This document shows, one piece after another, positions 22,547-54,717 of a DNA stretch of 64,000 nt. The stretch is from positions 1,798,001-1,862,000 of the forward strand of contig NZ_LOAJ01000001.1 of the NCBI RefSeq assembly GCF_001542905.1. The letters run 5' to 3'. The notes beneath the pieces were generated by a model. It was not told the origin of the DNA. It saw only the letters and a program-made list of their open reading frames with translations, and did no database searches. Source of the stretch: Halorubrum aethiopicum (GTDB taxonomy: Archaea > Halobacteriota > Halobacteria > Halobacteriales > Haloferacaceae). The number at the start of each line of letters is the position of its first letter. Position 1 is the first letter of the stretch. The position numbers were made by a program, and so were the translations under genes.

Positions 22547-22568
22547 CGGCGCTCCGCGTCACGCGTTC

Positions 22569-22849: not shown

Positions 22850-22897
22850 CCCCTAAGGGGGGAGACAATAACGGCCGGAGCCAGAACGGCTCCGGCC
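22850..22897. other. Palindrome plus strong hairpin in a 590-base non-coding region
   Basis: CCCCTAAGGGG (22850-22860) is followed by a perfect 10-base stem, GGCCGGAGCC (22873-22882) with GGCTCCGGCC (22888-22897), and the loop AGAAC. No U-run follows, so it is not a simple terminator. The surrounding stretch 22604-23138 contains an AT-rich patch (TATTTTAAAACATAA, about 22721) and no convincing gene. Such a layout downstream of a replication gene would fit an origin; this is inference. Confidence 0.4.
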
Positions 22898-23138
22898 TAC
22901 CGCCACATACCGCTCCGCACGTGGAACCTACAGAACGGTCGTAGAACGCCCCTTCAGCCGAATCAACACGGCCTCGTGGCTGACGGTACCCCGAGAAGGA
23001 AGGTTGTCAAGAAGCCTTACACGGCCATGTCGCCGGCCCCGACTGATTCTTCTAGGCCGAAGCCACAAATCGTGGAACTCGCCTCTATCTTCCCTGAGAG
23101 CGGCAACAACTATGTTCCACTATTCACAGGGATAGCGT

Positions 23139-23864: not shown

Positions 23865-23896
23865 AATATTATACTCACTCTCGATGAACCACCACT

Positions 23897-24412: not shown

Positions 24413-24523
24413 TCTCGGATCTAGAAGCGAGTTGAGGGCATTCGTCTTGGCGACCTCCTGTTCCACACGAGACTTCTCGGGATCACCAGTCTCAACGAAG
24501 GGGTCGTCAGCTCGTGACCGGCG

Positions 24524-24847
24524 TTACGCAGCCACTCCCTCAAGCCAGCCGAGGAGGAGCTCCAGAACCCAGCGCCCGACCGTGTCGTAGACCGTGCGGC
24601 CCGCACCCAGCGCGTCGCCGACGATCTCGCCGACCGGCGGTTCCCAGTACCCGAGCGCGACGAGCGCTAACAGCGTCACGACGACCGCCACCGCGACCGT
24701 CGCCGTCGACGACGCCGCGCCGACTGCCGCGCCGCCGATCGCCTTGTACCGACGATACCGGAGCAGGACCACCACACCGATGATGGCGATAAACAGCGAC
24801 TCCCCGACGTGATCGCCGAGGAAGCCGATGATGAGTGGGTCAGCCAT
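24524..24847 (-). CDS. Small membrane protein at the end of the envelope operon
   Basis: 107 residues with three hydrophobic stretches (LFIAIIGVVVLLRY, a long ATVAVAVVVTLLALVAL, and a C-terminal amphipathic VGRWVLELLLGWLEGVAA). It overlaps the end of the 1431-residue gene by eight bases and is the last gene of the operon. Likely a virion- or envelope-associated membrane protein. Unrecognised family. Confidence 0.7.
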   Translation of the reverse strand: MADPLIIGFLGDHVGESLFIAIIGVVVLLRYRRYKAIGGAAVGAASSTATVAVAVVVTLLALVALGYWEPPVGEIVGDALGAGRTVYDTVGRWVLELLLGWLEGVAA

Positions 24848-29135: not shown

Positions 29136-30366
29136 CGGCAGGCCCCCCCTGTGATGTCACTTCCCCTCGCGCGCGGGCGTAAGGCTGTGAGAGCGAAATC
29201 TTCAGCCAGCGACTGTCATCTTCCGGAAATTCGTGGATATCGTCCCACGATATCGGGTTGAAGCCGCCTTCCGTCCAGAAGATACAGTGACCCACGTCTC
29301 GCCTCGAGAGGAGATCGTGCTTCATCGGGATCTGGTTGAACCCGAGCGGCGGCCGATCGTTGTTCTCTTTACACGGGTTCGCCGTGCCGTCGGGCATGTT
29401 CACACGCCACTGGATGGTTCGTCGGATCTTCGAGTGGAGATTCTCCTCGTGATGGGCGAGGAAGAACAGCGAGAAGTGGAACTTCCGTGAGTCCGCCATC
29501 ACCCGGCGGAGTGCGTTGACCTTCTCGTACGTCTCGTGACGGTCCGCTCGAACGTTGTCGGGAGCGAAGTCCGCCGTCTCGTCGAAGATCAGCGAGACCC
29601 AGCCGTACGGCCCGTACTCGAGCTTCGCAATACAGTACGCGAACCACCAGTGAACGAGTGGCGTCGCGTCGTCTCCCTCCGTGGCGTTCCACTTCGGCGT
29701 CCACTCGACGGGCTGTGCCATGTAGTCGGACTCGGCCATGATCTCGCCGCAGCCGCTGAACGACGGGTCCGGATAGACGACGTTGAACGTCCCCGGCTTC
29801 AGCTGCTCGTTGACGTCTCGTGGGTCCTCGTAGTAGATCACCTCACGGACGATCTCTTCCAAGTCCGCGCTCTCTCCGTCGAGATCCTCCGTAATGACCT
29901 TCGGTTTCCACGTCGCATCGACCTCCGCGTTCGCTGGGAGGAACAACCGTGTCCACGGCTTCAGTGGAAGCCACTCCGAGCGCGTCGGCGCTCCGCGCCA
30001 GACGACGGCCTCGTTGTTGACCTCCATGAGGCGAGTCGCCCAGTAGAGCCCCCACGTCGACTTTCCGGAGCCTTTCTCGCCGACTGCGAGCCAGTTCGTC
30101 CCGCCGACGTGGCTCGTTCCGCGGTCTTCGGTCCGCGTCTCGTGAACGAGACAGTTCGGGTACGGATCCCAGTGGTAGTCGTTCGCGAACGGTTCGATGC
30201 CGAACCGACGGCGGATGTTGTCCGCGTCGGTGTTCTTGTTGTGCCAGCCCGTAGGCTTCGGCTCTGGGTCCGGGAAGTCCGGATGCGTCTGCTTGGTGTT
30301 CTCGCCCCATGCGACTCCGTCTGGCGGTCGACTCTGACGGCCGCCGTCTTGATGTTCTAAGCTCAT
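29128..30366 (-). CDS. P-loop ATPase of the envelope operon (412 aa)
   Basis: 412 residues with Walker A at 96-104 (VGEKGSGKST) and Walker B at about 252-260 (WVSLIFDETADF), then a sensor-like SRKFHFSLFFLAHHEE. Such stand-alone ATPases accompany envelope proteins in pleolipoviruses and resemble FtsK/HerA-type DNA pumps or VirB4/VirD4-type motors. The first 80 residues are polar and Pro-rich. The stop overlaps the start of the giant surface protein; the start lies two bases after the previous gene. Probable energy source for DNA loading or envelope assembly (inference). Confidence 0.75.
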   Translation of the reverse strand: MSLEHQDGGRQSRPPDGVAWGENTKQTHPDFPDPEPKPTGWHNKNTDADNIRRRFGIEPFANDYHWDPYPNCLVHETRTEDRGTSHVGGTNWLAVGEKGSGKSTWGLYWATRLMEVNNEAVVWRGAPTRSEWLPLKPWTRLFLPANAEVDATWKPKVITEDLDGESADLEEIVREVIYYEDPRDVNEQLKPGTFNVVYPDPSFSGCGEIMAESDYMAQPVEWTPKWNATEGDDATPLVHWWFAYCIAKLEYGPYGWVSLIFDETADFAPDNVRADRHETYEKVNALRRVMADSRKFHFSLFFLAHHEENLHSKIRRTIQWRVNMPDGTANPCKENNDRPPLGFNQIPMKHDLLSRRDVGHCIFWTEGGFNPISWDDIHEFPEDDSRWLKISLSQPYARARGEVTSQGGPADD

Positions 30367-30368
30367 CG

Positions 30369-31136
30369 TTATCCTTTCTGGAACTCTCCGGGGTCTTCGT
30401 CGGTCTCTACGTCCGACCGCTCACTCCCGTTGAGCGACCGTGCCGCGCTGAAGAACGACGGCATGATGATACCGATCGCGAACCGATAGCGGACCGACAG
30501 CGCCTCTCTCGACTCCGTATCGAGAAGTGCCTCGAGCATCACGGGCGACGAGACGATCCGTTCCATCAGCCGCTCCGGTTTTTCTCCGTTCGTCGGAGCC
30601 GACAGGCTCCGGACCCAGCGCCCGAGCGCCTCTCGGTCCTTGAAACCAACCCACAAGCTGTCGAGCGCGCTCGCTTGGGTCTCGTCGAGGATCTTGAACG
30701 CGGGACGGTTCAGCGGGTTCTTTTCGTAGCCGTCGGCCGTACCCTCACGATCGGAATCAGAATCGATGGTTTCCGTTGCCCGTTCCCTGAACTGGCGGTA
30801 CGCCAAGTCACACGTCTCGTCAAGGCGCTCGACGAGACGACGTCGGACGTACTGTGATTCGGGATCTGAAGCATCGACCAGATGTTCCAACACCCCAGCC
30901 AGTGGGAGCATGTGCTGCGGTTCGAGGACCGCCCCCACGTGCCCGAGCGTCCGGATACCTGCCGCTTGGTACCACACGAGCGCCTCTCGATACGTTCCGA
31001 ACCCGTCGCTCAGTGGACGTATTGGCGGGTTTCGGTGGTTGTCGCCATCGTACAGTAGCCGATCCTGATCACGGTCGAGCACGTCGAGCGCCCGCCGCGT
31101 CGTTCGTCGATCAGGTGTAGACTCGTCAGTCGTCAT
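30369..31136 (-). CDS. Soluble helical protein of the envelope operon (255 aa)
   Basis: Start at ATG 31136 (MTTDESTPDRRTTRRALDVL), which overlaps the end of the 617-residue gene by 11 bases; a longer frame upstream is only the shadow of that gene. Almost all-helical and charged, without membrane segments. GYEKNPLNRPAFKILDETQA in the middle and an acidic tail. Position between the large membrane protein and the ATPase suggests a cytoplasmic or internal partner. No family recognised. Confidence 0.7.
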   Translation of the reverse strand: MTTDESTPDRRTTRRALDVLDRDQDRLLYDGDNHRNPPIRPLSDGFGTYREALVWYQAAGIRTLGHVGAVLEPQHMLPLAGVLEHLVDASDPESQYVRRRLVERLDETCDLAYRQFRERATETIDSDSDREGTADGYEKNPLNRPAFKILDETQASALDSLWVGFKDREALGRWVRSLSAPTNGEKPERLMERIVSSPVMLEALLDTESREALSVRYRFAIGIIMPSFFSAARSLNGSERSDVETDEDPGEFQKG

Positions 31137-32979
31137 CGTCACCTTCCGCTTTCCGCGTGTCTTCGTCGCTATCCGCCAGTGCCCCGTCCGTATCCAAGCC
31201 AGAGCCGGCGTTGGCGTCCATCCCGAGCACGTCGAGATCCATGCCGACCTCTCCCTCCGAGAGCTGCTGTACGAGCGTCTTGTTCCGACGGCTCTCGATC
31301 TCACGGGCCTCCAGGGCCGTCCGGGATCGCTCGTTCCACGCGACTTCCTCGAGCTCGTCGATCGTCTTCGCGTCGGCGTGCTCGCTCTGGAGCACCGTCA
31401 GCGACGCGTCGGCCGTGATGTCGTGTCGCGGTGCCGGTTCGAAGCTGATCGAGCCGTCGACCGCCTCGTAGCTCTCGATCGCGAGGAGCACGACGCCGAT
31501 GAACGCGCCGACGAACGGGACGTTCGCCACCGTCCCGCCGACGTGCCAGCCGATGAGCGGCAGCGCCAGCACGCCGATCGTCAGCAGCGCGTAGAGCCCT
31601 CGCGTGATCGGCGAGAGTTTCTCGCCGTCGGCTGGCTTGGGAAGCCGATGCCAGACCGGCATCCGCCGCCGGAGGTGTGCCGGCCGGTGGTCGACCGCAG
31701 TCTCACCCTCCGGGTCGACGTACACCTTCTGCGAGGCCGACCCCGATACTCGGACCCGCGTCCGAAGATCGGAGAGGTCGAGCTTCGCGGCGCTCGAGAA
31801 CAGCCTCGCGAAGAACGGCCGGATCCCCTTCTTCGGGAGGAGCCGTCCACCCGTCGGTGCGCGGACCGTCGGAAGCAGCTTCAGGTCCTCATACAGCTCA
31901 TCGAAGTAACCGTCGTCGTCGAGCCCGACCCTGTCGGTCACGCTCGAGGCTGGCCCACTCCCTCCGTCCGGCACCGCATCCGGGTCGGCCTTCTCTTCGG
32001 ACTCGCCGCGCCGGAGGCTCACCGCCTCGGTGAGTTCTTTCCGCTCGAAGGCGATCCGTTCGAGCGGGGGCGACATCCGAAGGCCGCCGCCGTAGGCGAT
32101 CGGGAGCAGCGACATCCCCATCAGGATGTCGAGGTGCTCGACCACGACCGCCAGCTCGTAGTACAGTCCCGCGAGAGCGAGCAGGATGCCGACACCGGAG
32201 ACGAAGCCCCACGTCCCGAGCGAGTACCCCGGACCGCGGCCGGTTCGCTTGAGCGTCGCTCTCGCGCCCGAGAGACCGATCACGATCGCTCCGATCCCCG
32301 GTAGGATCGCGGTTCTGAAGACGTACCACCAGGCGTCCGCCTGCGTGTCGATCGCGACCTGCTGGGACGCCGGGGCTGAGGCATGGCCGAACCGCCAGCG
32401 CGCGCCGTCGACGAGCTCGCCGTCGCGTTCGAGCCACATCGTCGCCTCGACGCTCTCGTTGTAGTGGGAGTTCAACGCGATCGGCGCGGTCGCGTAGCCC
32501 GACTCGACGTCGACCGTCACGCGCTGAACTTCCTGGTCGGCCGCGTACTCGACGGTCGTCCCGTTCACGGTCTGACTCGCCGGCTGCCAGTAGACGATCA
32601 CCGCCTCGTACTCGCCAGTCGACTGCGAGCCGAACACGGTCGAGTAGAGCTCGATCTGGTCGGTGTTCAGCGTCGTTCCGCGTTCGAGGTGGACCGGCTC
32701 GTTCTCGAGCGGCCCGGCCGGCGTGTACCGGATCGCCATCGCTCCGCTCGGCGGCGAGCCGCCCACGTAGCGGACGGCAGGCGGAGCCGCTGCCGGCTGG
32801 TTCCCGCCCGTCCGCAGTTCCGAGATCTCGAACGGGCCGGGCGGCTCGAAGTCGACACTGCTGTTCTCGACCTGTGGTGCTGGTGCCGCGGCCGCCATCG
32901 CGGGCATCGCCGCCCCGAGCGCCGACAGCACACACAGGACTGCGAGGCTTGCCGCGGCGACCGCGGCACCCCGAGTCAT
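31126..32979 (-). CDS. Signal-peptide membrane protein with large cytoplasmic domain (617 aa)
   Basis: A clear signal peptide (about 1-31, ending MPAMAAAAP) leads into a ~190-residue beta-rich ectodomain with N-glycosylation-type sequons (NGT, NES). A group of membrane segments follows at about 220-305. A charged cytoplasmic region leads to two more membrane segments (about 463-500, GLYALLTIGVLALPLIGW) and an acidic C-terminal tail. The layout is that of a polytopic envelope scaffold with both outer and inner domains. It precedes the soluble helical protein and the ATPase, so these three may form one machine. Confidence 0.75.
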   Translation of the reverse strand: MTRGAAVAAASLAVLCVLSALGAAMPAMAAAAPAPQVENSSVDFEPPGPFEISELRTGGNQPAAAPPAVRYVGGSPPSGAMAIRYTPAGPLENEPVHLERGTTLNTDQIELYSTVFGSQSTGEYEAVIVYWQPASQTVNGTTVEYAADQEVQRVTVDVESGYATAPIALNSHYNESVEATMWLERDGELVDGARWRFGHASAPASQQVAIDTQADAWWYVFRTAILPGIGAIVIGLSGARATLKRTGRGPGYSLGTWGFVSGVGILLALAGLYYELAVVVEHLDILMGMSLLPIAYGGGLRMSPPLERIAFERKELTEAVSLRRGESEEKADPDAVPDGGSGPASSVTDRVGLDDDGYFDELYEDLKLLPTVRAPTGGRLLPKKGIRPFFARLFSSAAKLDLSDLRTRVRVSGSASQKVYVDPEGETAVDHRPAHLRRRMPVWHRLPKPADGEKLSPITRGLYALLTIGVLALPLIGWHVGGTVANVPFVGAFIGVVLLAIESYEAVDGSISFEPAPRHDITADASLTVLQSEHADAKTIDELEEVAWNERSRTALEAREIESRRNKTLVQQLSEGEVGMDLDVLGMDANAGSGLDTDGALADSDEDTRKAEGDDDD

Positions 32980-33158
32980 CGAGCGCCCTCCGTAGCGATG
33001 TACTGTTCGGCGAGTACAGCTGCCACGAGTGTCAATCCGATACCGACGAGAAGCGCGTACGGCCCAAGGTGCGGAAAGAGGGCTTCGGAGGTTGCTTTGA
33101 TCGCACTCACGATCATCTCGATCGGCGCTATCAACAGCGCTACGAACGCCGAGATCAT
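32976..33158 (-). CDS. Small membrane protein, paralogue group A (60 aa)
   Basis: MISAFVALLIAPIEMIVSAI, then HLGPYALLVGIGLTLVAAVL: two hydrophobic stretches. The second, beginning with GPYA, matches the C-terminal segment of the 163- and 153-residue proteins of the same operon (FGPFALIAGTGVVLGSFW; FGPLAYPIGIGVVVGSFW). It overlaps neighbours on both sides by four bases. Probably a shortened member of that family and an envelope protein. Confidence 0.65.
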   Translation of the reverse strand: MISAFVALLIAPIEMIVSAIKATSEALFPHLGPYALLVGIGLTLVAAVLAEQYIATEGAR

Positions 33159-42070: not shown

Positions 42071-42892
42071 ATGCAGATGGACTCGGCACCGATTTCAGAC
42101 GCACAGCTCGGAGCGACTAGTGCGAGGGAGACAGTCATCAAGGCCACTGGTCTCACAAAACGATACGGATCTCTGATCCCGTTTAGACGCACCGTCGAGG
42201 TCCTGGACGACGCCTCCCTTCGTGTCGAGCGAGGACAGATCGTCGGGATCATGGGCGAGAATGGCAGTGGAAAATCTACGCTGATGAACATCCTCGCCGG
42301 CGTTCTCGACTACGACGCGGGTGAGGTCGAACGAACCGGCCAGATCGGCTGGTGCCCACAGGAACCACGGCTCTACGATCGTTTGACTGTCGATGAGACG
42401 TTCCAGTTGTTCGGCCGTGCCTACGGGATGAACGACGCCGCGATAGCGGACTCGCGTGCGTGGCTCTTGGACGAATTGGATTTCGAACGATTCCATAACC
42501 GCCAGGTCCGTCATCTCAGCGGCGGGACCCGACAGAAGTTGAATCTCGCAGTCGCACTGATGCACGATCCGGACCTGCTCTTGCTGGACGAACCCTACAC
42601 GGGATTCGACTGGGAGACGTTCTTGGCCTTCTGGGAGTTAGCAGACGATCTCCGTGCTCGTGGTGTTGGAATCGCCATTATTTCCCATATCATCAGCGAA
42701 CACGACAGGTTCGACGTGGTCTACAAACTACGGGACGGAAACCTGACTAGGACGGCGACTGAGTACGACAACCAACCCGCCGGTTCTCGGTCTGATTCGG
42801 CTGCTGAGTCGGGCGCAGATCGCACTGGGACGTCGAACGCTGATGAATTAGGCGCGAATACCTCTGACCAGTGGGGGGACGATCGAGTATGA
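42071..42892 (+). CDS. ABC-2 exporter ATP-binding subunit
   Basis: 273 residues from ATG 42071; an upstream extension of the frame is non-coding. Walker A GENGSGKST at about 62-70, Q-loop WCPQEPRLYD, signature HLSGGTRQKLNLAVAL and Walker B LLLLDEPYTGFDW are all intact. The disordered acidic Ser/Asp C-terminus is unusual but common in haloarchaea. The stop overlaps the next gene's start (ATGA). Two permease genes follow, giving a complete exporter of unknown substrate; divergent to the Lrp-TRASH regulator. Confidence 0.88.
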   Translation: MQMDSAPISDAQLGATSARETVIKATGLTKRYGSLIPFRRTVEVLDDASLRVERGQIVGIMGENGSGKSTLMNILAGVLDYDAGEVERTGQIGWCPQEPRLYDRLTVDETFQLFGRAYGMNDAAIADSRAWLLDELDFERFHNRQVRHLSGGTRQKLNLAVALMHDPDLLLLDEPYTGFDWETFLAFWELADDLRARGVGIAIISHIISEHDRFDVVYKLRDGNLTRTATEYDNQPAGSRSDSAAESGADRTGTSNADELGANTSDQWGDDRV

Positions 42893-43638
42893 ACAGCGCC
42901 CAGCGAGTGACGATCAGCGTCCGTGCGAAAGTGCGGTCGTTCACGGCAAAACCGTTCCTTCTCGTGTTATTCCTGCTCATGCCGATCGTTTCGATTCAGC
43001 TGTATGGATTGAGCGTTGGGGGAATTGCTGATTTCGGTCTCTTTGATACGGAGGTTCCCTTACGGCTTATTGGAAAGATTACCGGGGCTATCTTTGTAAC
43101 CAGCACTCTCGCCGGCATCCTCGGACTATTCCAAAGTCTCAGTGTTCAGAGGGCCGACAGTCGGCTGGTGGTTTCAGGATACCACCGGCTCGAACTCGCG
43201 GCCGCACGATTTGTAACAATCGTCTTCGCAGCTCTGATTGTAGCAGTGGTGACCACTATCTCACTCAAATGGTCGATCGGTGGCCATCTCGCCTCGGCAG
43301 CGATAACGTTGGCTGGGCTGTTCGTAGCTGGTGTGCTCTACGGAGCGCTTGGCGTCCTCATCGGGAGCGTTCTACCACGGTCGCTTGAAGGCTCACTTGT
43401 GCTCGTCGCGCTCGCAGATGTCAGTGCAATCGTCGCAAGCGGGCTCTTCCCCATCAGCGACAGTCTCACCCATCTCTTCCCCCTATCTCATATACACGAT
43501 ATCGTCCTACAAGCCGTGGTTGAAGGGTCAACTGCGACTACCCACGTACTCCCTGTACTCGGCTACCTCCTCGTCGTCATTCTCTTCGCCGTTTTCGCGT
43601 ATGTACAGGCCCTGTCAGCAGGCGGTGATACAGTGTGA
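42889..43638 (+). CDS. ABC-2 exporter permease subunit 1
   Basis: 249 residues from ATG 42889, which overlaps the ATPase stop. Six hydrophobic segments: about 21-40, 60-82, 104-125, 132-155, 163-185 and 222-243. The ABC-2 layout has the first segment preceded by basic residues (RAKVRSFTAKP). Stop and next start overlap (GTGA). Confidence 0.8.
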   Translation: MNSAQRVTISVRAKVRSFTAKPFLLVLFLLMPIVSIQLYGLSVGGIADFGLFDTEVPLRLIGKITGAIFVTSTLAGILGLFQSLSVQRADSRLVVSGYHRLELAAARFVTIVFAALIVAVVTTISLKWSIGGHLASAAITLAGLFVAGVLYGALGVLIGSVLPRSLEGSLVLVALADVSAIVASGLFPISDSLTHLFPLSHIHDIVLQAVVEGSTATTHVLPVLGYLLVVILFAVFAYVQALSAGGDTV

Positions 43639-44378
43639 ACCGACGAACCTCGACCGCAGTCACGATGGGAGTGCGAGAGTTCTATCGAACTCCAGTCCTC
43701 GTCGCCGTCCTCCTCATCCTGCCCGCGTATCTCGTCGGTGCGTTCGTCCTTCTCGTCCCGAAGACAAATATCCCGGTGAGCCTCGGAGAAACGACAGCTA
43801 CTGTCTCTATGCCAGCCTTCGCCACTGTGTTCGAGACGGCTGTCTCAGTTGCTATCCTGTCCGGAATCATAGGATTATTCCTGGTATTGAGTTCAAAAGC
43901 GGCTGACGACCGCCTCCGACTCGCAGGCTATAGCGAGCTTGAACTCATCGTTTCTCGAATCGGGACGTTGGGAACAAGCGTCGTTGTGGTGACTGCGGTC
44001 ACCGTTAGCATCGCCGTTCAAGTGTTCCAGCCAGCTAACTTCTGGACCTTCACGGCGATTGTGGGCCTCCTCGGTCTTACGTACGGTGTCGTGGGCGTTC
44101 TCGTCGGACTTCTGTTCGACAAACTGGGTGGCGTGTATGTGATGCTTCTCGTTCCGTTCTGGGACGTTCACTTCCTACTGTTCCAGGAGACGCTAACATC
44201 CGACCTCCTCTGGTGGGCCGAGTATCTTCCTGGCCACTACGCGACAACGGCACTCTTTGATGCTGCATTCACTGCCGGTGTTGAGATCAATATGATTCTC
44301 GGTATTGTTGGATACGCGGCCGTCCTCACTGTGGTGAGTGCCGTTGTATTCTATCACATGTCTCGGATCAAGTCATAA
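43635..44378 (+). CDS. ABC-2 exporter permease subunit 2
   Basis: 247 residues, GTG start at 43635 overlapping the upstream stop. Six hydrophobic segments in the same order as subunit 1, with similar phrases (ILSGIIGLFLVLSS versus STLAGILGLFQSLS), so the two permeases are paralogues forming a heterodimer with the ATPase. Host-like codon use. Confidence 0.8.
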   Translation: MNRRTSTAVTMGVREFYRTPVLVAVLLILPAYLVGAFVLLVPKTNIPVSLGETTATVSMPAFATVFETAVSVAILSGIIGLFLVLSSKAADDRLRLAGYSELELIVSRIGTLGTSVVVVTAVTVSIAVQVFQPANFWTFTAIVGLLGLTYGVVGVLVGLLFDKLGGVYVMLLVPFWDVHFLLFQETLTSDLLWWAEYLPGHYATTALFDAAFTAGVEINMILGIVGYAAVLTVVSAVVFYHMSRIKS

Positions 44379-44479
44379 ATGAAGGGAACGACGAAAGCTC
44401 GTTCAGACTTCAATTATCTCCGCTAACAAGACTAGAGCCGATCAGATAGGACAATCGCCAAGGGGGATACACGCTCTGT

Positions 44480-44542: not shown

Positions 44543-45148
44543 CTATGCGAATCCTGCTTCCTCGAAGGCCTCATTCACGACTTCAGGTGTCGGGGCGTTG
44601 AGGTACGGCTCGATCGCCTGAAAGGAGTCCCACCCGCCGACGGTCATGACGACGCGCGGGTTCACCTGTTTATCGACGAGGAGGCGCTGAGCGAACCGGC
44701 GACGGAGATCGTGGCTCGACACGTGGAGGAAGTCCTCGTCGCCCGTGTTCTCGGCCGCGCGCTCGGCCGTGCGTTTCACCACCGCCCGGACGCCACTCTC
44801 GGAGAGGTCCACGATCGGCTCGTGGCGACCGACGTCTTCGGAAGTGACGTACCGGTGGATGTCGCCCTCGACGTCGCGAGGCAGATAGGCGTCGCGAGGC
44901 TTCCCGCCGTTCCCGGTCGTGTCCTTCCCCTCTGGAACGCGGAGCCGGAAGTGGTCGCCGTCCGGGGTGCGTTTGACGTGTTTCGGTGCGACCTGTGGGA
45001 TCTCGAAAGCGCGGAGCCCGACGAACCCGCCGAGTTGGATCACCAGGTCGTCGCGGATGCTCCCCGAAGCGCGGCGGAGTTCCTCGAGTTCGTCGTCGGT
45101 GAGCCAGCATTTGTACTGGTCCGGCTTCCCGGTGGACTCTAATCGCAT
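44543..45148 (-). CDS. Catalytic-domain-only tyrosine integrase (201 aa)
   Basis: Arg46 in GLRAFEIPQV, His146-Asp-Leu-Arg149 in SSHDLRRRF, Trp173 in GGWDSFQAIEPYL and Tyr182 give the complete catalytic set. The usual ~100-residue N-terminal SAM-like arm-binding domain is absent, so it resembles the short haloarchaeal integrase class. A perfect inverted repeat lies at its start codon. It may have moved the right accessory block (45-55 kb), but no att repeats were found. Confidence 0.85.
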   Translation of the reverse strand: MRLESTGKPDQYKCWLTDDELEELRRASGSIRDDLVIQLGGFVGLRAFEIPQVAPKHVKRTPDGDHFRLRVPEGKDTTGNGGKPRDAYLPRDVEGDIHRYVTSEDVGRHEPIVDLSESGVRAVVKRTAERAAENTGDEDFLHVSSHDLRRRFAQRLLVDKQVNPRVVMTVGGWDSFQAIEPYLNAPTPEVVNEAFEEAGFA

Positions 45149-45151
45149 ACC

Positions 45152-45168
45152 ACCTTCTCAAAGAAGGT
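45152..45168. promoter_or_regulatory. Inverted repeat at the short integrase promoter
   Basis: ACCTTCT CAA AGAAGGT is a 7-base perfect inverted repeat with a three-base centre, ending four bases before the integrase ATG on the minus strand. Likely operator, or an attachment-core palindrome. Confidence 0.4.
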
Positions 45169-45324
45169 AGCACTTAGTACGGCAGAACCGACGAGGGCCC
45201 CGGCGTGATCGGGGCGGATTCAGGGGGTCTGGTGACGACTTGTATAAGAAGTCGTCCACCCTGATTTTTCGTACAGGCGCATCACCGGCGGTAGAATTAG
45301 TAAAAAGCCGACAAAAATATCGGT

Positions 45325-46803
45325 ATGCCCAGTTCTGAATATGAAATTCCCAACGAGCCGGATATAGGCCCAGAAGAAATTGAACCTGAGGTGGACTTCA
45401 ACAATGCTAACCTCACCGATGCGACTCTCTCCAGATCTAACCTCATTGCCGCGAACCTCGAAGAGGCCAATCTCTCTCACGCGGACCTCAAACGGGCGGA
45501 CCTCACCGACGCGAACCTCGAAGGGGCAGATCTGTCTGACGCAGTTCTCTCTGGGGCCGATCTCACCGACGCAGTTCTCTCTGGGGCCGGTCTCACCGAC
45601 GCGAACCTCGGAAGTGTCAATTTCACCGACGCGAACCTCGGAGATACAAACCTCACCGACGCGAACCTCGGAGAGGCCGACCTCTCAGGTGCGATCCTTT
45701 CTGGAGCTAACCTCACCGACACGAACTTACAAGCTGCCAAATTTCCTAGAGTGAACCTATCCAGAACAGATCTTAGCGGCAGGAACTTTCGACATGTCGA
45801 ATTCTTTGATGCTAACCTCAGATACGTCGATCTCACTGGTGCGAGCCTTGAGGATACGGTTTTCACCTCTGCAAACCTCTCAGGAGCCGACCTCACCGAC
45901 GTGAGTCTCGAGGGTGCCAAGCTCACCGATGCCAACCTTACCGGAGCCGATCTTGCCAACGCGAACCTCGAAAATGCCGATCTTGCCAACGCAAACCTCC
46001 AAGATGCTGATCTCACTGACGCGAATCTTGAGGGAGCCAATCTCACCTATGCGAACCTCGAAAGTGCCGATGTTATGATCTCTAACCTCATAGAGGCTGA
46101 CCTCAGACATGCCACCCTTCACCGTACTGCTCTCGACGGTGCCGATCTTCAGAACGCCAACCTGTCACGAACAGATTTACGCGGTGTCAGCTTAGCCGAC
46201 ACGAGTGTGAATCAGGGGACGACAGTCGGTAGAATGTGTCTTAATTTGTCGAGCCCAGACGAGTATGATGAGTTGGCCCAGGGTTATCACGAATTCAAGC
46301 AAGCACTTAGTAGAGAGGGACTCAGCCAGCGGGCACGACGGGCGTGGGCGCTTGAACAGCAGGCACGTACCGCTGAAGCGTGGGAGCGGTTTAAGCAGCA
46401 ATCGATTTTGAGTGTTCGAAATCTGCGGACCCTCAACGACTTGCGTGTGTGGTTATTACCACCTTGGCCCGACCCCGAACTCCGTACACAATTCTTCACA
46501 TCGGTCGGCGGCACACTCTCTCGGTACCTCACGGGATATGGCACCCGACCACTCTACGTCCTCCTGTGGTCGGCGGTAATCCTGTTTGTTACAACTGCCC
46601 TATTCGCACTCGGCCCGGTTCCGGCTGAAGGTTGGGAAGGCGGACCACTATACTACTCAGTTGTTACGTTTGTGACGGCACCGCCCCATCCGCCAAGAGA
46701 TGCGGGTTCTATCACACGGGCAGCCGTGTTACTTGAAACGTATCTCGGGACGGCCCTGATTGTTTTGTTGGGTTACGTACTCGGTACTCGCGAGCGCGTG
46801 TAG
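45325..46803 (+). CDS. Pentapeptide-repeat protein fused to a two-TM pore-like domain
   Basis: 492 residues. From about 27 to 295 the protein is an uninterrupted run of A(D/N)Lxx pentapeptide repeats (ANLTDANLGD and similar), which fold into a right-handed beta helix. A helical linker follows (about 310-385, SREGLSQRARRAWALEQQAR). The C-terminus has two membrane segments (about 405-425 and 465-485) around a pore-like loop, YYSVVTFVTAPPHPP, in the place of an ion-channel filter. The filter does not read TVGYG, so selectivity is open. Similar fusions occur in haloarchaea and bacteria; role unknown, perhaps a membrane-gating effector. The DNA repeats are codon-level direct repeats, not CRISPR. 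Confidence 0.8.
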   Translation: MPSSEYEIPNEPDIGPEEIEPEVDFNNANLTDATLSRSNLIAANLEEANLSHADLKRADLTDANLEGADLSDAVLSGADLTDAVLSGAGLTDANLGSVNFTDANLGDTNLTDANLGEADLSGAILSGANLTDTNLQAAKFPRVNLSRTDLSGRNFRHVEFFDANLRYVDLTGASLEDTVFTSANLSGADLTDVSLEGAKLTDANLTGADLANANLENADLANANLQDADLTDANLEGANLTYANLESADVMISNLIEADLRHATLHRTALDGADLQNANLSRTDLRGVSLADTSVNQGTTVGRMCLNLSSPDEYDELAQGYHEFKQALSREGLSQRARRAWALEQQARTAEAWERFKQQSILSVRNLRTLNDLRVWLLPPWPDPELRTQFFTSVGGTLSRYLTGYGTRPLYVLLWSAVILFVTTALFALGPVPAEGWEGGPLYYSVVTFVTAPPHPPRDAGSITRAAVLLETYLGTALIVLLGYVLGTRERV

Positions 46804-46846: not shown

Positions 46847-47779
46847 CTACACTTGGTGAAGCGTGGTAGAAACGTCTAATTCATAGAGTGATATATGATC
46901 CAACGCAGATACAGCATGTTTAATTCTGGAAGTGAAGCTCTCGGCAATAAGAATTCCATCAACTGATTGTGACTGATCAGCTGATTTTACACCAACGTAT
47001 CCTAGAAGCTGACCGAGTGCTCGGTCGCCCGCTCGGCCGTATTTGATCTCGATTACTGTTTCACCGTTCTCAGACTCAGCTAGAATATCAACACGACCTG
47101 CCTCGGTTCGAACCTCTCGCTCCGGATTGTACAATCCGAGGGTTCGAATGTTGTTTGCCACCCACTCTTGTATTTGTGATTCTCGTTCTGGCCCGAAAGC
47201 ATCTCCGGAGATATCAACAGTCTCTGTTTCAGAGATCTCCTTGACAAGTGTCTCTATTCGATCTCGATCAGTTGCCAAACTCCCATACTGATTCAGTGTC
47301 ATCGGGGTAGGGATCTGATCGGAACCATTGACCTGGTACCGCTTCGAAAGGTCAGTAACAGACACAGGCGTCCCCCAGTCGAACCAAGATACTGGTCTCC
47401 AGTAGTAGTGATCAGCTACTTTCGCTTCCTCCGCTTCTTGCTCACTAAGGTACCGGAACGTCTGATCTTCATCGTAGCGAATATCTCCTACTTTCCCAAC
47501 CCCAGTGAGATGGCCTTTTCCGGGAGCGTATGCTATCACGATATCATTTTCTTCCATCCCATCACTGTGATGACCAATAAATTTTGAAAGTTGGTTGTTA
47601 TGTGACGGATCACTATCTCGGAATGTCTCAGGATCTACACTTCGAAAGTCTCCCGCACTATCTCCCCATCCGGTGGTGACTATATTGCGATCCAACCAGT
47701 CATCTTCCAAAACACCACCTCGTCCCGCTTTCAGGCACCACCAAGTTGTATCCTCTTCTGTCTGAATTTCAACAGTCAC
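46847..47779 (-). CDS. EVE/PUA-like domain fused to NucS-type PD-(D/E)XK nuclease
   Basis: 310 residues from GTG 47779, chosen because a TATA box lies 24-30 bases upstream; an ATG 15 codons earlier falls on the TATA itself. The N-terminal domain (WWCLKAGRGGVLEDD, NIVTTGWGD, then NDIVIAYAPGKGHLTGVGKV) is EVE/PUA-like and may read modified bases. The C-terminal domain carries the nuclease set: Asp in GRVDILAES, Glu-x-Lys in VIEIKYGRAG, and a Gln/Gly-rich helix DRALGQLLGYVGV, like NucS/DUF91. Such fusions are typical of modification-dependent restriction. Last gene of a run of nuclease genes. Confidence 0.75.
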   Translation of the reverse strand: MTVEIQTEEDTTWWCLKAGRGGVLEDDWLDRNIVTTGWGDSAGDFRSVDPETFRDSDPSHNNQLSKFIGHHSDGMEENDIVIAYAPGKGHLTGVGKVGDIRYDEDQTFRYLSEQEAEEAKVADHYYWRPVSWFDWGTPVSVTDLSKRYQVNGSDQIPTPMTLNQYGSLATDRDRIETLVKEISETETVDISGDAFGPERESQIQEWVANNIRTLGLYNPEREVRTEAGRVDILAESENGETVIEIKYGRAGDRALGQLLGYVGVKSADQSQSVDGILIAESFTSRIKHAVSALDHISLYELDVSTTLHQV

Positions 47780-47798
47780 GTTCTTTATCTGTGGTATG

Positions 47799-47812
47799 AT
47801 GATTATATATTT
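47799..47812 (-). promoter_or_regulatory. TATA box of the EVE-nuclease gene
   Basis: AAAATATATAATC on the minus strand, about 25 bases before GTG 47779. It supports the shorter protein and a separate leaderless transcript. Confidence 0.5.
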
Positions 47813-47850
47813 TCCTACATACACGTGCTGAGTTTATTGACCTCGTGAGC

Positions 47851-48471
47851 TTACGTGTGAGCATCCTGGACGATCCAGCTGATTACGGCGCCCTTCTGGT
47901 GATGTGGGTGGCGGAGACCATCGAACTGTTCTACGGCGACTGTTTCGATGTCGACGTCGAACCAGTACTCGACGTCTATTTTGAACTTCTCAGCAATCCG
48001 ATCCGCTCGTAGTTGCTCATACTCCTCGTTTTCTTCCTCGTAGTAGATACCGAGCAACCCGTATGGGGACGAGAATTCGGATTCTATGAGCTTTTGAGCA
48101 TCCGTGAGTAGTGACGAGGAACTTCGCTCCGGGAACGGACTAAAGACGCTCTTGTACATGTTGGGATCGATGTTCCCATTATCAAGCCGGAACCGGAGGA
48201 GCTTCGCTTCGGTCGGGACCTCAAGATCTCCATCGTGGACCACGAGGTCGCATCTACGCCCGCTTTCCGGATAGCTCACTTCGCGCTCAATGTTGTCAGG
48301 AACGTTGCCTCTGGTAGCGAGTGTATCCAATATCATTTCGAGCTGTCTCTCCTCCTCGAAGGGTCCGATACCTGGATCCCAACGGTCGTGCGTCGCCTTC
48401 TTGTCGATCTCGGGAATTACACTCGCGAAGTCGTTCGTAATCTCTCGGAGTAACTCAGTTGTCTGCGTCAT
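47851..48471 (-). CDS. PD-(D/E)XK-like protein beside the restriction gene
   Basis: 206 residues. GRRCDLVVHDGDLEVPTEAK is a PD-(D/E)XK-type core (Asp, then Glu-Ala-Lys at about 73-93). SSLLTDAQKLIESEFSSPYG forms the following helix, and DVEYWFDVDIETVAVEQFDG the late strands. No extra domain is fused. It starts five bases downstream of the Mrr-like gene, so both proteins probably act together. Whether it cuts DNA or is a nuclease-fold helper is open. Confidence 0.7.
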   Translation of the reverse strand: MTQTTELLREITNDFASVIPEIDKKATHDRWDPGIGPFEEERQLEMILDTLATRGNVPDNIEREVSYPESGRRCDLVVHDGDLEVPTEAKLLRFRLDNGNIDPNMYKSVFSPFPERSSSSLLTDAQKLIESEFSSPYGLLGIYYEEENEEYEQLRADRIAEKFKIDVEYWFDVDIETVAVEQFDGLRHPHHQKGAVISWIVQDAHT

Positions 48472-48476
48472 CCTTG

Positions 48477-49640
48477 TTATCTCTCTAGTCCGACGGCCTT
48501 CTCAATATCTGTGACGACGCGATCAGTGAGTCGACGATCGTCTACGAGTTCGGTCTGAGCGAGGAGTTTCACGAGATCTCCACCGGAGAACAGCCGGTTC
48601 GGGTACGCGGAGAGGTTCTCCTCTTGGGCCTGTTTCGTGTAGTGTGACGTCGTGAAGAATAGTCCGGTCTCCCCGTCTTCGACACGCGAGGCGAGTCGGC
48701 TCAGTTCCTTGCCCGAGACGCTCGATCCCTTGTTCTTAACCTGCGCTTTGAACTCGATCCCGGTGTCGGTCGAACCGAGCGGCGCATCTGGGAGGAGGTC
48801 GATCTGCCCCTCGAGATCCACGCCACGATCGCCACTCGTCGGTGTCTGTTTTACCTGGCTGAAGTTCGGAAGGGTCTCGAGGAGGTACTGAACGAGATAT
48901 TCCATCTTTTCGCCCTTCTTCGGGTCGTCGAGTCGGCTTCGGATGTCGTCGAGGAGGGGCTGATAGTCGGAATCGGGGAGCTGTGCGTCCTTTGAACGGA
49001 TCCGATCTTTGTAGATCGAGTATCTCTGAACGCGTCCACTGTCCACCCATTCGTCCCACGCACCGGGACCACCGACGTCGATACCGGTCCGTGACTTACG
49101 ATGGATCCATTCGAGGTCGACGGTGTCGGCATCGAGGATCGCGAGATCGAAGAGGTAGTTCACGACGGTGTCGTCGCCGTCCTTGTAGCGCTCGATGCTG
49201 ATCTCCGTCAGAATACAGACGCCCTGGAAAGTGATTTCCCCCGAGCGTGGTTTCTCGAAGAGGAGAATCGGCGGAGCGTCTTCACGATCGTCCTGTGCGT
49301 AGGTCTCGCAGTAGTCGGTCTTCACCCACCTGTTCCCGTTTGCGTTCTCCGGGTTGGGGTTGTGCCGGGCTTTCGCATCTCCCCAGTAGCGGACGATTCC
49401 TTCCTCGCGATTGATCACGTCCTCCCACGGGTTCTGCGGGCCCCCTCGCTCTTGACTGGAGACGAAGACGAGGAATTCACGCTCTCCGGTCGTCGAATTC
49501 ACGATCGCGCGGATGCCGCCACTGTTCCGGATTCCGTTGTCGATCGGTCCATTCAGCCACGACTGAAATTCGTCTTTTTCTGGATCCGAGGAGCTACGAT
49601 ACGTTTCGCCGACGACGTACTGCCCTCCATAACCCGGCAT
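48477..49640 (-). CDS. Mrr-type restriction endonuclease with N-terminal DNA-reader domain
   Basis: 387 residues. The N-terminal ~200 (GGQYVVGETYRSSSDPEKDE, FLVFVSSQERGGPQNPWED, VRYWGDAKARHNP, FQGVCILTEISIERYKDG) match the reader domain of AspBHI-type 5-methylcytosine-dependent enzymes as I know it. The C-terminal Mrr-cat fold has GDRGVDLEG, the catalytic EFKAQVKNKG and a following ELSRLASRVEDGETGLFFTT. The protein therefore probably cleaves modified foreign DNA. It heads the nuclease run; a RelE/RHH pair lies just upstream on the same strand. Confidence 0.8.
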   Translation of the reverse strand: MPGYGGQYVVGETYRSSSDPEKDEFQSWLNGPIDNGIRNSGGIRAIVNSTTGEREFLVFVSSQERGGPQNPWEDVINREEGIVRYWGDAKARHNPNPENANGNRWVKTDYCETYAQDDREDAPPILLFEKPRSGEITFQGVCILTEISIERYKDGDDTVVNYLFDLAILDADTVDLEWIHRKSRTGIDVGGPGAWDEWVDSGRVQRYSIYKDRIRSKDAQLPDSDYQPLLDDIRSRLDDPKKGEKMEYLVQYLLETLPNFSQVKQTPTSGDRGVDLEGQIDLLPDAPLGSTDTGIEFKAQVKNKGSSVSGKELSRLASRVEDGETGLFFTTSHYTKQAQEENLSAYPNRLFSGGDLVKLLAQTELVDDRRLTDRVVTDIEKAVGLER

Positions 49641-49707: not shown

Positions 49708-49971
49708 TCAGGGTGGAAGATGACGATCGTAGACGTTCCGACGGTGACCCACCGCTTCGACACGGAGGAGGTCCTTCGATCGGTCCCACGTGATGATCGC
49801 ACGGTAATCGCCGGCGCGAAGCTTGTAGTACGGATAGTTCGTGAGCGGCTCGAGTCGGTGATCCGTCCACTCGGTCGCTTCGTCGACCTTGTTCATCACG
49901 CGGTCGGCGACCTGTGGATCGAGTCCTTCGAGATGCTCGACCGCCTGCTCGGTGTACTCGACCTCCGTCAT
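49708..49971 (-). CDS. RelE/ParE-type toxin
   Basis: 87 residues: TEVEYTEQAVEHLEGLDPQV, YKLRAGDYRAIITWD and VEAVGHRRNVYDR are classic RelE/ParE features, with the C-terminal RxxVY. It overlaps the RHH antitoxin gene by four bases (ATGA). RelE-type toxins cut mRNA on ribosomes; ParE types act on gyrase. The RAGDYR and GHRRNVY forms favour the RelE group. Confidence 0.88.
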   Translation of the reverse strand: MTEVEYTEQAVEHLEGLDPQVADRVMNKVDEATEWTDHRLEPLTNYPYYKLRAGDYRAIITWDRSKDLLRVEAVGHRRNVYDRHLPP

Positions 49972-50249
49972 TCGTCGCCGTCGAGTCCGAGACGTTCCCG
50001 CACTTCGTCCGCATCGTAAGTCTCACCGCGCTCGGCCTGTTCGCGGCTCTTCTCCAAGTCCTCGAGCGTTTCCTCCGAAAGCGTTGCCGGAGGGTTCACC
50101 CAGTTTCGCAGCGCGTCACGGATGGCCTCGGATTTGCTCGAATACCCGCGGTGCTCCCACTCCTCTTCGATCTGGGTGAGGAGCTTCTCGGGAACTCGAA
50201 CGTTGATCTTCTCCATCCGATCGTCACCGGAGTCCGTGTCGATACTCAT
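49968..50249 (-). CDS. Ribbon-helix-helix antitoxin
   Basis: 93 residues from ATG 50249. A strand-helix-helix core (KINVRVPEKLLTQIEEEWEH, RGYSSKSEAIRDALRNWV) is followed by an acidic C-terminal toxin-binding tail. Overlap with the RelE-like gene and antitoxin-first order are those of a classical pair. It is divergent from the Orc1/Cdc6 gene, with origin-box-like repeats between, so it may help stabilise a replicon. Confidence 0.85.
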   Translation of the reverse strand: MSIDTDSGDDRMEKINVRVPEKLLTQIEEEWEHRGYSSKSEAIRDALRNWVNPPATLSEETLEDLEKSREQAERGETYDADEVRERLGLDGDE

Positions 50250-50290
50250 AGTCTGTGATACAGCGGTGATACACAAAAGGATTCGGGGAA

Positions 50291-50333
50291 GTTGGAACCC
50301 ATCCGGAACCGATCGGAACACTGGGGGTTCCGC
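50291..50333. repeat. Origin-recognition-box-like repeats upstream of orc1/cdc6
   Basis: GTTGGAACCCATCCGGAACC, then GATCGGAACACTGGGGGTTC and C. Several GGAAC/GTTCC words and a G-run are present. The core GGAACCGATCGGAAC followed by a G-rich stretch recurs at 53792. Position directly before an Orc1/Cdc6 gene suggests ORB elements of a replication origin. Confidence 0.45.
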
Positions 50334-50363
50334 TTATGTCCCATCGCCGTCTCGGGGTCAGAC

Positions 50364-51401
50364 ATGCTCCGTGATGGGGAGGTGTTCAGAGACGATCACC
50401 TGCCCGACCCGATCGTCGGCCGGAATCGACACATGAACGAGGTGACGGACGCCCTCGCACCGATTGAGGAGGGTTTTCGCGCCGAGAACGTCTTCCTGTT
50501 CGGGCCCTCCGGCGTCGGGAAAACGACCGTCGCGAAGGCGGCCGTCCGCGAACTTCGGCGTGAAGTCCTCGAGGTTCCCTACGCCTACGTGAATTGCTGG
50601 CGAGATCACACCAGAAACAGGATCCTCGACCAGATCGCACGCGGACTGGTCGGCGCAACGCTCCCCCGATCCTCGTCGACCAGCCGGCTTATCGACCTGA
50701 TCGAGAGCAACCTCCACGGGCCGGGCGTCGTCATCCTCGACGAGGCCGACCAGCTCCGCGGCACCGAGGTGCTCTACGATCTCCACGAGATACACGGGCT
50801 CTCGTGGATCGGCATCGCGAACCGGGAGATCGACCTCTTCGCCGACCTCGACGACCGGATCACCTCGCGGATCAGCGTCGCCTACCGCGTCCGGTTCGAC
50901 ACCTACGGCACGGACACGATCACGGAGATCCTCTCTCGACGAGCTCGGGATGGGCTCGGTCCGGGGGCCGTCAGCGATGACGTGCTCGCGCGGATCGCGC
51001 GCCTCTCCGAAGGAGACGCGCGCCAGGCGATCACGGCGCTCCGAGTCGCCGTGCGGATGGCGAGCCAAGAAGGGCTCGCCGCGATCCCTGAACGCCTCGT
51101 CGAGGACGCGGTCCGTAACGCCGAGCACGAAGTGCGACAGAAGACGATCTCGAAGCTGAACACACACCAGCGTGCGCTCCACGAGGTTCTCGTCGAGGCG
51201 GAGGGCGGGCTCATTCAGAAGGACCTCTACGCTCGGTACGAGGAGCGCCACGACGACCCCGTGACGTTGCGGTATCTCCGGGAGAATCACCTGCCGAAAC
51301 TGGAGCACTACAATCTGATCGAGGTCGAGTGGGACAGGGGGACGAAGCGGTACTCTCTCGTCGGCGTTGACGAACCGGAATCGCGCCCCGAACAGCTCTA
51401 A
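50364..51401 (+). CDS. Orc1/Cdc6 family replication initiator
   Basis: 345 residues from ATG 50364; the frame opens earlier across the repeat region but that part is not protein-like. AAA+ features: Walker A GPSGVGKTT at about 48-56, Walker B VVILDEADQL at about 122-131, sensor 1 IGIANREIDLF, sensor 2 EGDARQAITALRVA. A C-terminal winged helix follows (about 272-335). The initiator-specific DIVGR-like start PDPIVGRNRHMNEV is present. This is a plasmid-type paralogue near a toxin-antitoxin pair, probably serving an integrated replicon. Confidence 0.9.
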   Translation: MLRDGEVFRDDHLPDPIVGRNRHMNEVTDALAPIEEGFRAENVFLFGPSGVGKTTVAKAAVRELRREVLEVPYAYVNCWRDHTRNRILDQIARGLVGATLPRSSSTSRLIDLIESNLHGPGVVILDEADQLRGTEVLYDLHEIHGLSWIGIANREIDLFADLDDRITSRISVAYRVRFDTYGTDTITEILSRRARDGLGPGAVSDDVLARIARLSEGDARQAITALRVAVRMASQEGLAAIPERLVEDAVRNAEHEVRQKTISKLNTHQRALHEVLVEAEGGLIQKDLYARYEERHDDPVTLRYLRENHLPKLEHYNLIEVEWDRGTKRYSLVGVDEPESRPEQL

Positions 51402-53848: not shown

Positions 53849-54169
53849 ATGGCTTCGAAGCAACCGACACACGGCAGCAGCGCTCGGACGAAGGAGTTCG
53901 ATATCGACCTCGCCGCGGAGGGGAGCGGCCGCCACCGAGGGCCTAATTACGTGCTCGCGGAGGTCAGCGTCGACGCGAACTTCACGCTCCGCATCGAGAT
54001 CGAGGCGGCGAACCAGTACGACTGGCAGCTCGACGCGCGATTCGTCGACGGCTCGCTGGAGGTCGGCGACGTCTTCTGTGAGGGTGACAGCGTTCCCGAC
54101 GACATGGTCCCGAGCTGGGTCGAACGCGTCGTCGGCGTGGTCGGGAGACGGCTCGCCGGGGGTCGATGA
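53849..54169 (+). CDS. Unknown small protein before the methylase remnant (106 aa)
   Basis: Polar start (MASKQPTHGSSARTKEFDID), then a strand-rich core (VLAEVSVDANFTLRIEIEAA, YDWQLDARFVDGSLEVGDVF) and a C-terminal helix. The stop overlaps the methylase start (ATGATG). GC-rich like viral and plasmid genes here. No family recognised. Confidence 0.6.
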   Translation: MASKQPTHGSSARTKEFDIDLAAEGSGRHRGPNYVLAEVSVDANFTLRIEIEAANQYDWQLDARFVDGSLEVGDVFCEGDSVPDDMVPSWVERVVGVVGRRLAGGR

Positions 54170-54717
54170 TGCCCGACGCCGTCTTTCCCTACCCGGGCGG
54201 GAAGAGCCGCTTCGCGTCGTGGATCCTCGAGCAGGTTCCCGAACATGTCTGCTTCGTGGAAGTGTTCGGGGGCGCGGCCGGCGTCCTCGCGAACAAGGAC
54301 CCGGACACGAGCGACGTCGAGGTGTACAACGACCGCGACGGCGATCTGGTCCAGTTCTTCGAGGTCCTCCGCGATCGCTCCGAGGAGCTGATCGAGTGGC
54401 TCGACCGGACGCCGTACTCGCGCGAGCTCCACGACGAGTGGGCGCACAAGTTCTTCCACGGCTACCGGCCGAGCGACCCGATCGAGCGTGCCGGCCAGTT
54501 CTTCTACCTCCGGTATACGCAGTGGGGCGGGAAGTACGACGGGTTCGCGGGGTTGGAGGGCGACTGGATCTGCTCGTACGAGGACCTGCCAGAGTGCTTC
54601 GAGGACGTGTACGTGCTCGACCGCGACGAGAAGCGGTTCATCAACAGCGGAAAGCGCGGGTCGGCGAAGGACGCGAAAGAGCGGCTCGTGATGAACTTCG
54701 ATCCGGAGAAAGTCTAA
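54166..54717 (+). pseudogene. D12-class DNA adenine methylase with internal deletion
   Basis: 183 residues with an intact reading frame. The N-terminal part is clear: FPYPGGKSRFASWILEQVPE (motif X), FVEVFGGAAGV (motif I) and VEVYNDRDGDLVQFFEVLRD, ending at FFYLRYTQWGGKYDGFAG. The text then jumps to LEGDWICSYEDLPECFEDVY, which is normally near the C-terminus, and ends RERLVMNFDPE-like (AKERLVMNFDPEKV). The whole middle with the catalytic DPPY motif is missing, and the family length is ~260-300. The protein may fold but should not methylate. Overlaps the preceding gene. Confidence 0.65.

What the first reader, a model, noticed from the sequence alone, without database searches (positions are those of the whole stretch)
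46847..49640. Three PD-(D/E)XK proteins in one strand run: candidate composite modification-dependent restriction locus
An Mrr-type enzyme with an AspBHI-like reader domain, a single-domain PD-(D/E)XK-like protein five bases downstream and an EVE/PUA-like-NucS-like fusion follow one another. Two carry putative modified-base readers of different type. No DNA methyltransferase is attached, which fits type IV restriction. The middle protein has no assigned role.
Basis: partly seen in the sequence, partly recalled or inferred. Interest (0 to 1): 0.62.

Follow-up and report, generated by a model that had tools for sequence, protein, structure and literature searches.

The report
Restriction genes in a swap slot
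Three intact nuclease genes, at least one of them a methylation-dependent restriction enzyme by sequence, sit side by side in a haloarchaeon, but comparison with relatives shows that they are separate passengers in a spot where each strain carries a different set of DNA-defence genes, not one machine.

Summary
In detail: three same-strand genes at 46847-49640 encode three different PD-(D/E)XK-type proteins with conserved catalytic residues. The composite-system reading is not supported. P0001 (AspBHI_N + Mrr_cat) is a complete relative of the MspJI/AspBHI cytosine-modification-dependent enzymes. P0003 has a NucS_C nuclease domain behind a probable EVE/PUA-like domain. P0002 belongs to no listed family; it is found in 46 of 391 haloarchaeal genomes, with D75, E88 and K90 invariant. 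The trio occurs nowhere else. P0001+P0002 recur together, same strand, once (Halobellus salinus). Two closely related genomes carry P0001 without P0002 behind it, and P0003 relatives are never beside the others. The genes lie in a slot between a tyrosine recombinase and an orc1/cdc6 gene, a frame conserved in ten Halorubrum genomes, with different cargo in each: McrBC, a C5-methylase R-M set, HNH nucleases, AspBHI-Mrr, toxin-antitoxin pairs. New here: the P0002 family recurs within 3 kb of GIY-YIG, SRA-like+HNH, DUF6884 or AspBHI-type genes in about 25 of 47 loci, against none in 400 kb of control DNA. Most likely P0001 restricts modified-cytosine DNA alone, and P0002 is a separate or accessory nuclease. 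Function is untested.

The parts
48477..49640 (-). P0001: AspBHI_N (SRA-like reader) + Mrr_cat nuclease, 387 aa; catalytic D275, Q300, K302
   Evidence: Pfam; PADLOC mREase_II; PDB sequence hits 4f0p (1.7e-19) and AspBHI 4oc8 (9.9e-17); alignment
47851..48471 (-). P0002: unnamed PD-(D/E)XK-like protein, 206 aa; E40, D75, E88-x-K90
   Evidence: no hit above cut-off in Pfam, NCBIfam, PADLOC or PHROGs; 46 of 391 genomes; alignment; model; tree
46847..47779 (-). P0003: probable EVE/PUA-like domain + NucS_C nuclease domain, about 310 aa from the GTG at V16 (ORF as listed begins at 47824)
   Evidence: Pfam; PADLOC PDC-S02; PDB NucS 3.7e-11; alignment
45325..46803 (+). pentapeptide-repeat protein with C-terminal hydrophobic segments; neighbouring cargo, similar genes in the same slot of other Halorubrum
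   Evidence: Pfam (L233, L235, L241)
44543..45148 (-). 201-aa tyrosine recombinase, left frame of the slot; DNA conserved to about 45254
   Evidence: Pfam Phage_integrase; 84-93% identical DNA in about a dozen Halorubrum genomes
49708..50321 (-). ParE-like toxin (49708-49971) and RHH antitoxin (49968-50321), cargo beside P0001
   Evidence: Pfam; syntenic with P0001 in G014 (L132)
50292..51401 (+). orc1/cdc6 family gene, right frame of the slot
   Evidence: NCBIfam TIGR02928; synteny
54166..54717 (+). D12-class N6-adenine methylase, broken: lacks about 237 nt incl. DPPY present in relatives
   Evidence: Pfam; intact 263-aa copy in L132; gap pattern

Best explanation
The run is a set of independent nuclease-type defence cargo genes in a variable slot between a tyrosine recombinase and an orc1/cdc6 gene in Halorubrum. 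Shown: intact genes, conserved catalytic residues, P0001 without P0002 behind it in two close relatives, and different restriction and other cargo at the same position in other Halorubrum genomes. Inferred: P0001 alone reads modified cytosine with its SRA-like domain and cuts incoming DNA nearby with its Mrr-type domain, as MspJI/AspBHI do. P0003 is probably a second stand-alone reader-nuclease for another modification. P0002 is a PD-(D/E)XK nuclease of a haloarchaeal family that often travels near other nucleases; in this window it most likely acts alone or adds a second cut, and is not needed by P0001.
For: P0001 matches the MspJI/AspBHI architecture end to end. In G363 the P0001 and recombinase DNA (84-85% identical) are joined by about 600 bp without P0002/P0003; in G014 (93%) the 139 nt after P0001 do not match P0002. 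The frame recombinase-cargo-orc is syntenic in ten Halorubrum genomes with cargo of 0.6-5 kb; the same recombinase flank carries MrcB_N+McrBC, EVE-like+HNH, C5 methylase + type II REase, HNH, or a HicA-type toxin in others. G+C differs: P0001 58%, P0002 53%, P0003 46.5%. P0003 relatives stand alone, or in a type I R-M operon in Acinetobacter. Only 3 of 47 P0002 loci have a C5 methylase within 5 kb.
Against: The 5-nt gap means P0001 and P0002 are probably co-transcribed here. They recur together on one strand in Halobellus salinus (L109), and AspBHI_N-type genes lie within 3 kb of P0002 in L130 and L148, more than random placement would give; a functional link is not excluded. No activity, expression or modification specificity was measured. 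The fold search for P0002 gave no confident match.
Confidence: 0.75

Rival explanations
1. P0001 and P0002 form a two-gene modification-dependent system: P0001 reads and cuts, P0002 makes the second cut or degrades the product.
For: 5-nt gap, same strand; same order in Halobellus salinus L109; AspBHI-type genes within 3 kb of P0002 in 4 of 47 loci; the P0002 family keeps company with several other nuclease types.
Against: The closest P0001 orthologues lack P0002; of eleven full-length-type P0001 loci outside the window (L109, L132-L141) only L109 has P0002 within 3 kb (L132 and L133 are cut by contig ends on one side); most P0002 copies have no AspBHI-type neighbour; MspJI/AspBHI enzymes work alone (PMC4499157, PMC3874153).
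Confidence: 0.13
2. The three genes are one composite modification-dependent restriction locus with two readers and three nucleases.
For: Adjacency, same strand, two reader types, intact active sites.
Against: Trio in no other genome of 391; P0003 never next to P0001 or P0002 elsewhere; cargo slot with changing content; different G+C of the three genes.
Confidence: 0.04
3. P0002 is not a defence nuclease but a regulator or DNA-maintenance protein of mobile elements; RefSeq calls some plasmid copies 'transcriptional regulator'. (This concerns P0002 only and can hold together with the main explanation of the locus.)
For: Plasmid records name it so; one clade lies near a recombinase (7 of its 10 rows in the tree) and two copies lie inside a provirus-like element.
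Against: Invariant D75, E88, K90 in the PD-(D/E)XK order, no DNA-binding domain found; recurrent nuclease neighbours against none in the control.
Confidence: 0.12

Closest known systems
MspJI / AspBHI family of cytosine-modification-dependent restriction enzymes (for P0001)
   Same: SRA-like AspBHI_N reader and Mrr_cat domain over the full length; catalytic D and Q-x-K conserved
   Different: About 26-28% identical to bacterial members; haloarchaeal; specificity and cut distance unknown
EVE/PUA-like reader fused to a PD-(D/E)XK nuclease; PADLOC candidate PDC-S02; NucS/EndoMS C-terminal domain (for P0003)
   Same: NucS_C nuclease domain with D246, E259-x-K261 and Q272 invariant; weak EVE match in a homologue; EVE-PD-(D/E)XK fusions are predicted modification-dependent enzymes (PMC7641849)
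   Different: Far below the cut-off for full-length NucS (48 against 216 bits); the EVE match is below Pfam's cut-off
Characterised enzymes of the nuclease types found near other P0002 genes: HHPV4I/HhiV4I (PUA-wH-HNH, m6A) and CMoRE (GIY-YIG, 5hmC) (PMC10101028, PMC11037411, PMC12923530)
   Same: Neighbours of P0002 elsewhere are SRA-like+HNH and GIY-YIG proteins
   Different: Homology of the neighbours to these particular enzymes was not tested directly; P0002 itself is unlike them
Integrase-bearing genomic islands with R-M genes in Halorubrum ezzemoulense (PMC11078007) and the Listeria immigration control region (PMC10059834)
   Same: A spot with different restriction genes in different strains, recombinase-linked in Halorubrum
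   Different: This recombinase-orc frame and its cargo list across species of the genus are described here; I did not check whether it equals one of the published islands

Membership tests
MspJI/AspBHI-type modification-dependent restriction enzyme (P0001) | N-terminal SRA-like reader of AspBHI type | tested here: met
   PF18062 165 bits, cut-off 27
MspJI/AspBHI-type modification-dependent restriction enzyme (P0001) | C-terminal Mrr-type PD-(D/E)XK domain with conserved catalytic residues | tested here: met
   PF04471 43.5 bits; D275, Q300, K302 invariant in 8 sequences
MspJI/AspBHI-type modification-dependent restriction enzyme (P0001) | No cognate methyltransferase | tested here: met
   None in the run; the nearest is a broken D12 gene 4.5 kb away
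MspJI/AspBHI-type modification-dependent restriction enzyme (P0001) | Cuts only DNA with modified cytosine, at a fixed distance | not testable with these tools
   Needs a biochemical assay
PD-(D/E)XK superfamily (P0002) | Conserved D...E-x-K on adjacent core strands | tested here: met
   D75, E88, K90 invariant in 36; strands 73-80 and 83-92
PD-(D/E)XK superfamily (P0002) | Fold match to solved members | tested here: inconclusive
   No Foldseek hit under 0.001; BglII Z 5.9, SwaI 5.5, BglI 5.1, mixed with unrelated folds
Type II restriction enzyme with methylase partner (P0002) | Adjacent DNA methyltransferase | tested here: not met
   C5 methylase within 5 kb in 3 of 47 loci; none of amino type by motif; the window copy has none adjacent
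NucS/EndoMS mismatch endonuclease (P0003) | Full-length NucS with its own N-terminal domain | tested here: not met
   Only NucS_C matches; NCBIfam 48 bits against cut-off 216
EVE-nuclease type IV enzyme (P0003) | EVE/PUA-like reader domain | tested here: inconclusive
   PF01878 19.8 bits, cut-off 23, in homologue L145 only; structure model too poor
Composite three-gene restriction system | Conserved co-occurrence of the three genes | tested here: not met
   Trio in no other genome of 391
Defence-gene hotspot with exchanged cargo | Conserved frame, different defence cargo at the same place | tested here: met

The most novel reading that the evidence does not exclude
The P0002 family is the constant core of an undescribed haloarchaeal defence module: a PD-(D/E)XK protein that works with exchangeable partner nucleases (P0002-DUF6884-GIY-YIG in one clade, GIY-YIG-P0002 in another, SRA-like+HNH or AspBHI-Mrr in others), so that P0001-P0002 in this window would be one more variant of that module.
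Probability: 0.22. Interest if true: 0.62.

Novelty: new member of a known kind. Interest (0 to 1): 0.42.

Why it matters
It turns an apparent three-enzyme machine into a cleaner and testable picture: Halorubrum strains swap DNA-defence genes at one recombinase-orc slot, including enzymes that attack methylated DNA and a methylating R-M set. It also points to a nuclease family without annotation (P0002, in 12% of sampled haloarchaeal genomes), probably misnamed as a regulator in some records, with a recurrent DUF6884-GIY-YIG operon that deserves a virus-defence test.

Tried and rejected
Viral contigs: no relatives of P0001 or P0002, and only NucS-domain relatives of P0003. Phage records: no P0002, one distant P0001. 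Structure of P0003 from an alignment of distant nuclease domains: pLDDT 35.7, not used. Fold search for P0002: only middling Z values, mixed folds. Idea that P0001 excludes host C5 methylases: rejected, 7 of 11 P0001 genomes have one against 101 of 194 in the class, and the window's own genome has one. Idea that the provirus-like element at 19-33 kb is a known halovirus: no match for two of its genes in phage records, though one gene fits a viral regulator family. DUF6884 literature: nothing on function found. Relation of P0002 to P0001's nuclease by profile: none. The left flank of the slot (window 42800-44470) is not shared by other Halorubrum, so no empty site was defined.

Full report
What is there. 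The window is G000:C1:1798001-1862000 of a 3.3-Mb haloarchaeal genome. Its genus holds Halorubrum lipolyticum and H. saccharovorum (matching contigs). Three intact minus-strand ORFs follow one another: P0001 48477-49640, P0002 47851-48471, P0003 46847-47824. P0001 and P0002 are 5 nt apart. Homologues of P0003 begin near its residue 18, so the probable start is the GTG at V16.

P0001. RE_AspBHI_N (165 bits) and Mrr_cat (43.5 bits) cover the protein; PADLOC calls it mREase_II. By sequence it matches the solved enzymes 4f0p (MspJI, name from my own knowledge) and AspBHI 4oc8 over nearly the full length. D275 and Q300-x-K302 are invariant in eight orthologues of 57-95% identity, while E296 is not conserved; the active site is therefore of the D...QxK kind. 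The 5mC/5hmC specificity is inferred from the family.

P0002. No library names it. It occurs in 46 of 391 genomes of the class. In 36 aligned homologues D75, E88, K90 and several other residues are invariant and E40 nearly so. The AF2 model (pLDDT 82.7) shows helix 40-53, strands 61-66, 73-80 and 83-92, helix 121-129, strand 137-145, the order expected of the PD-(D/E)XK core, with the conserved residues where the active site would be. Profile comparison with the NucS-like domain of P0003 aligns all four putative catalytic residues in register, though with low probability (32%). Fold searches were inconclusive.

P0003. NucS_C is the only confident domain. The segment 'GMEENDIVIAYAPGKGHLTGVGKV' resembles the EVE/PUA-like core by eye, and the homologue in L145 gives a sub-threshold EVE match. 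E215, D246, E259, K261 and Q272 are invariant down to a 27%-identical Acinetobacter relative, which lies inside a type I R-M operon. Close relatives in haloarchaea are few (four in 391 genomes) and stand alone. My structure model failed.

Are they one system? Neighbourhoods of 60 fetched loci were compared. The trio is found only in the window. P0001 and P0002 are neighbours on one strand only in L109, Halobellus salinus, where the order is HNH, AspBHI-Mrr, P0002, DUF6884, GIY-YIG-like (the last by sequence motif and family profile; NCBI names longer relatives GIY-YIG nuclease). In Halorubrum G363, P0001 (84% DNA identity) and the recombinase (85%) are separated by only about 600 bp, and P0002, P0003 and the pentapeptide gene are absent. 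In G014 (93%), the sequence right behind P0001 is not P0002. So P0001 is maintained without the other two.

The slot. The recombinase DNA at 44543-45254 is 84-93% identical in about a dozen Halorubrum genomes. In ten genomes, the window's included, the orc1/cdc6 gene follows within about 5 kb, often with the D12 methylase block behind it. Cargo at the recombinase flank differs: a C5 methylase with a type II REase match (L239), MrcB_N and McrBC (L236), McrBC with an AAA partner (L241), HNH with an EVE-like 177-aa protein (L235; EVE-like by eye and by its match to P0003), HNH (L233), a HicA-type toxin pair (L231), unassigned genes (L234, L237, L243), and P0001 with short ORFs resembling that toxin pair (L133). 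G010 keeps only the first 30 codons of P0001, and G335 only the last 29. In L233, L236, L240 and L241 the orc gene was not found within the stretch fetched, so for these only the recombinase side is shown. The three genes of the finding are therefore best seen as cargo, and their different G+C (58, 53, 46.5%) agrees.

What P0002 does. Profiles made from its recurrent neighbours (GIY-YIG-like, DUF6884, SRA-like+HNH, AspBHI-Mrr) hit within 3 kb of P0002 in 25 of 47 loci (26 if a weak NucS-like hit is counted) and in none of twenty 20-kb control stretches of the same genomes. The profiles were built from those neighbourhoods, and loci of one clade are not independent, so the p-value is only indicative. 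In the tree, the DUF6884 context is confined to a group separate from the recombinase context, each compatible with a single origin. The window copy belongs to the recombinase clade, nearest to two copies carried inside a provirus-like element in other Halorubrum genomes. The same element lies in the window at about 20-33 kb with other cargo in that position. Only 3 of 47 P0002 loci have a C5 methylase within 5 kb, which argues against a classical type II partner. I commit to P0002 being a PD-(D/E)XK nuclease of defence type that acts alone or as an accessory; the catalytic fold is fairly well supported, the defence role is inferred from its company.

Known background. MspJI/AspBHI-type enzymes act as single proteins (PMC4499157, PMC3874153). 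SRA/PUA-wH-HNH (PMC10101028, PMC11037411) and GIY-YIG (PMC12923530) modification-dependent enzymes have been characterised, the first from a haloarchaeal virus. EVE-PD-(D/E)XK fusions were predicted as such (PMC7641849). Patchy R-M genes in Halobacteria and integrase-bearing islands with R-M genes in Halorubrum ezzemoulense are published (PMC6471742, PMC11078007). The finding thus fits known kinds; the P0002 family and its partner pattern are the element I could not find described in the papers searched.

Verdict. Interest is moderate, mainly for the P0002 family and the slot.

Noticed in passing
window 54166-54717: D12 adenine methylase gene lacking about 237 nt that include the DPPY motif; relatives (e.g. 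L132:4594-5385) are intact. The window copy is probably inactive.
   Followed up: partly
window 18773-33000: Provirus-like element with integrase, a viral-type regulator (phrog_15150) and a tRNA-Gly at its end; cargo position 22.9-24.5 kb holds a membrane protein and a cyclic-phosphodiesterase-like (2H) protein, where G206 (L092) carries a P0002 homologue.
   Followed up: partly
L121 8004-8609 (G000:C1:90422-91003): Second P0002 homologue (44% identical) in the same genome, beside an RlmE-like gene and a 520-aa ORF; same context in L123 and L125.
   Followed up: no
L105, L106, L107, L109, L110, L147: Compact operon P0002-DUF6884-GIY-YIG, with DUF6884 remnants in L103 and L104; candidate defence module.
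   Followed up: partly
L181-L200: DUF6884 genes without P0002 often have a GIY-YIG-like gene next to them; some upstream genes look like other PD-(D/E)XK nucleases by eye (L183, L198).
   Followed up: no
window 45325-46803; L233, L235, L241: Pentapeptide-repeat proteins recur in the recombinase-linked slot next to restriction genes.
   Followed up: no
L176 6004-6939: P0003-like NucS-domain protein placed between HsdS and HsdR in a type I R-M operon on an Acinetobacter plasmid; similar matches on five other Acinetobacter plasmids.
   Followed up: no
NZ_CP084473.1, NZ_CP026313.1, NZ_CP100458.1: P0002 homologues are annotated 'transcriptional regulator', probably a misannotation; the Halomarina copy lies near BREX genes.
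   Followed up: no
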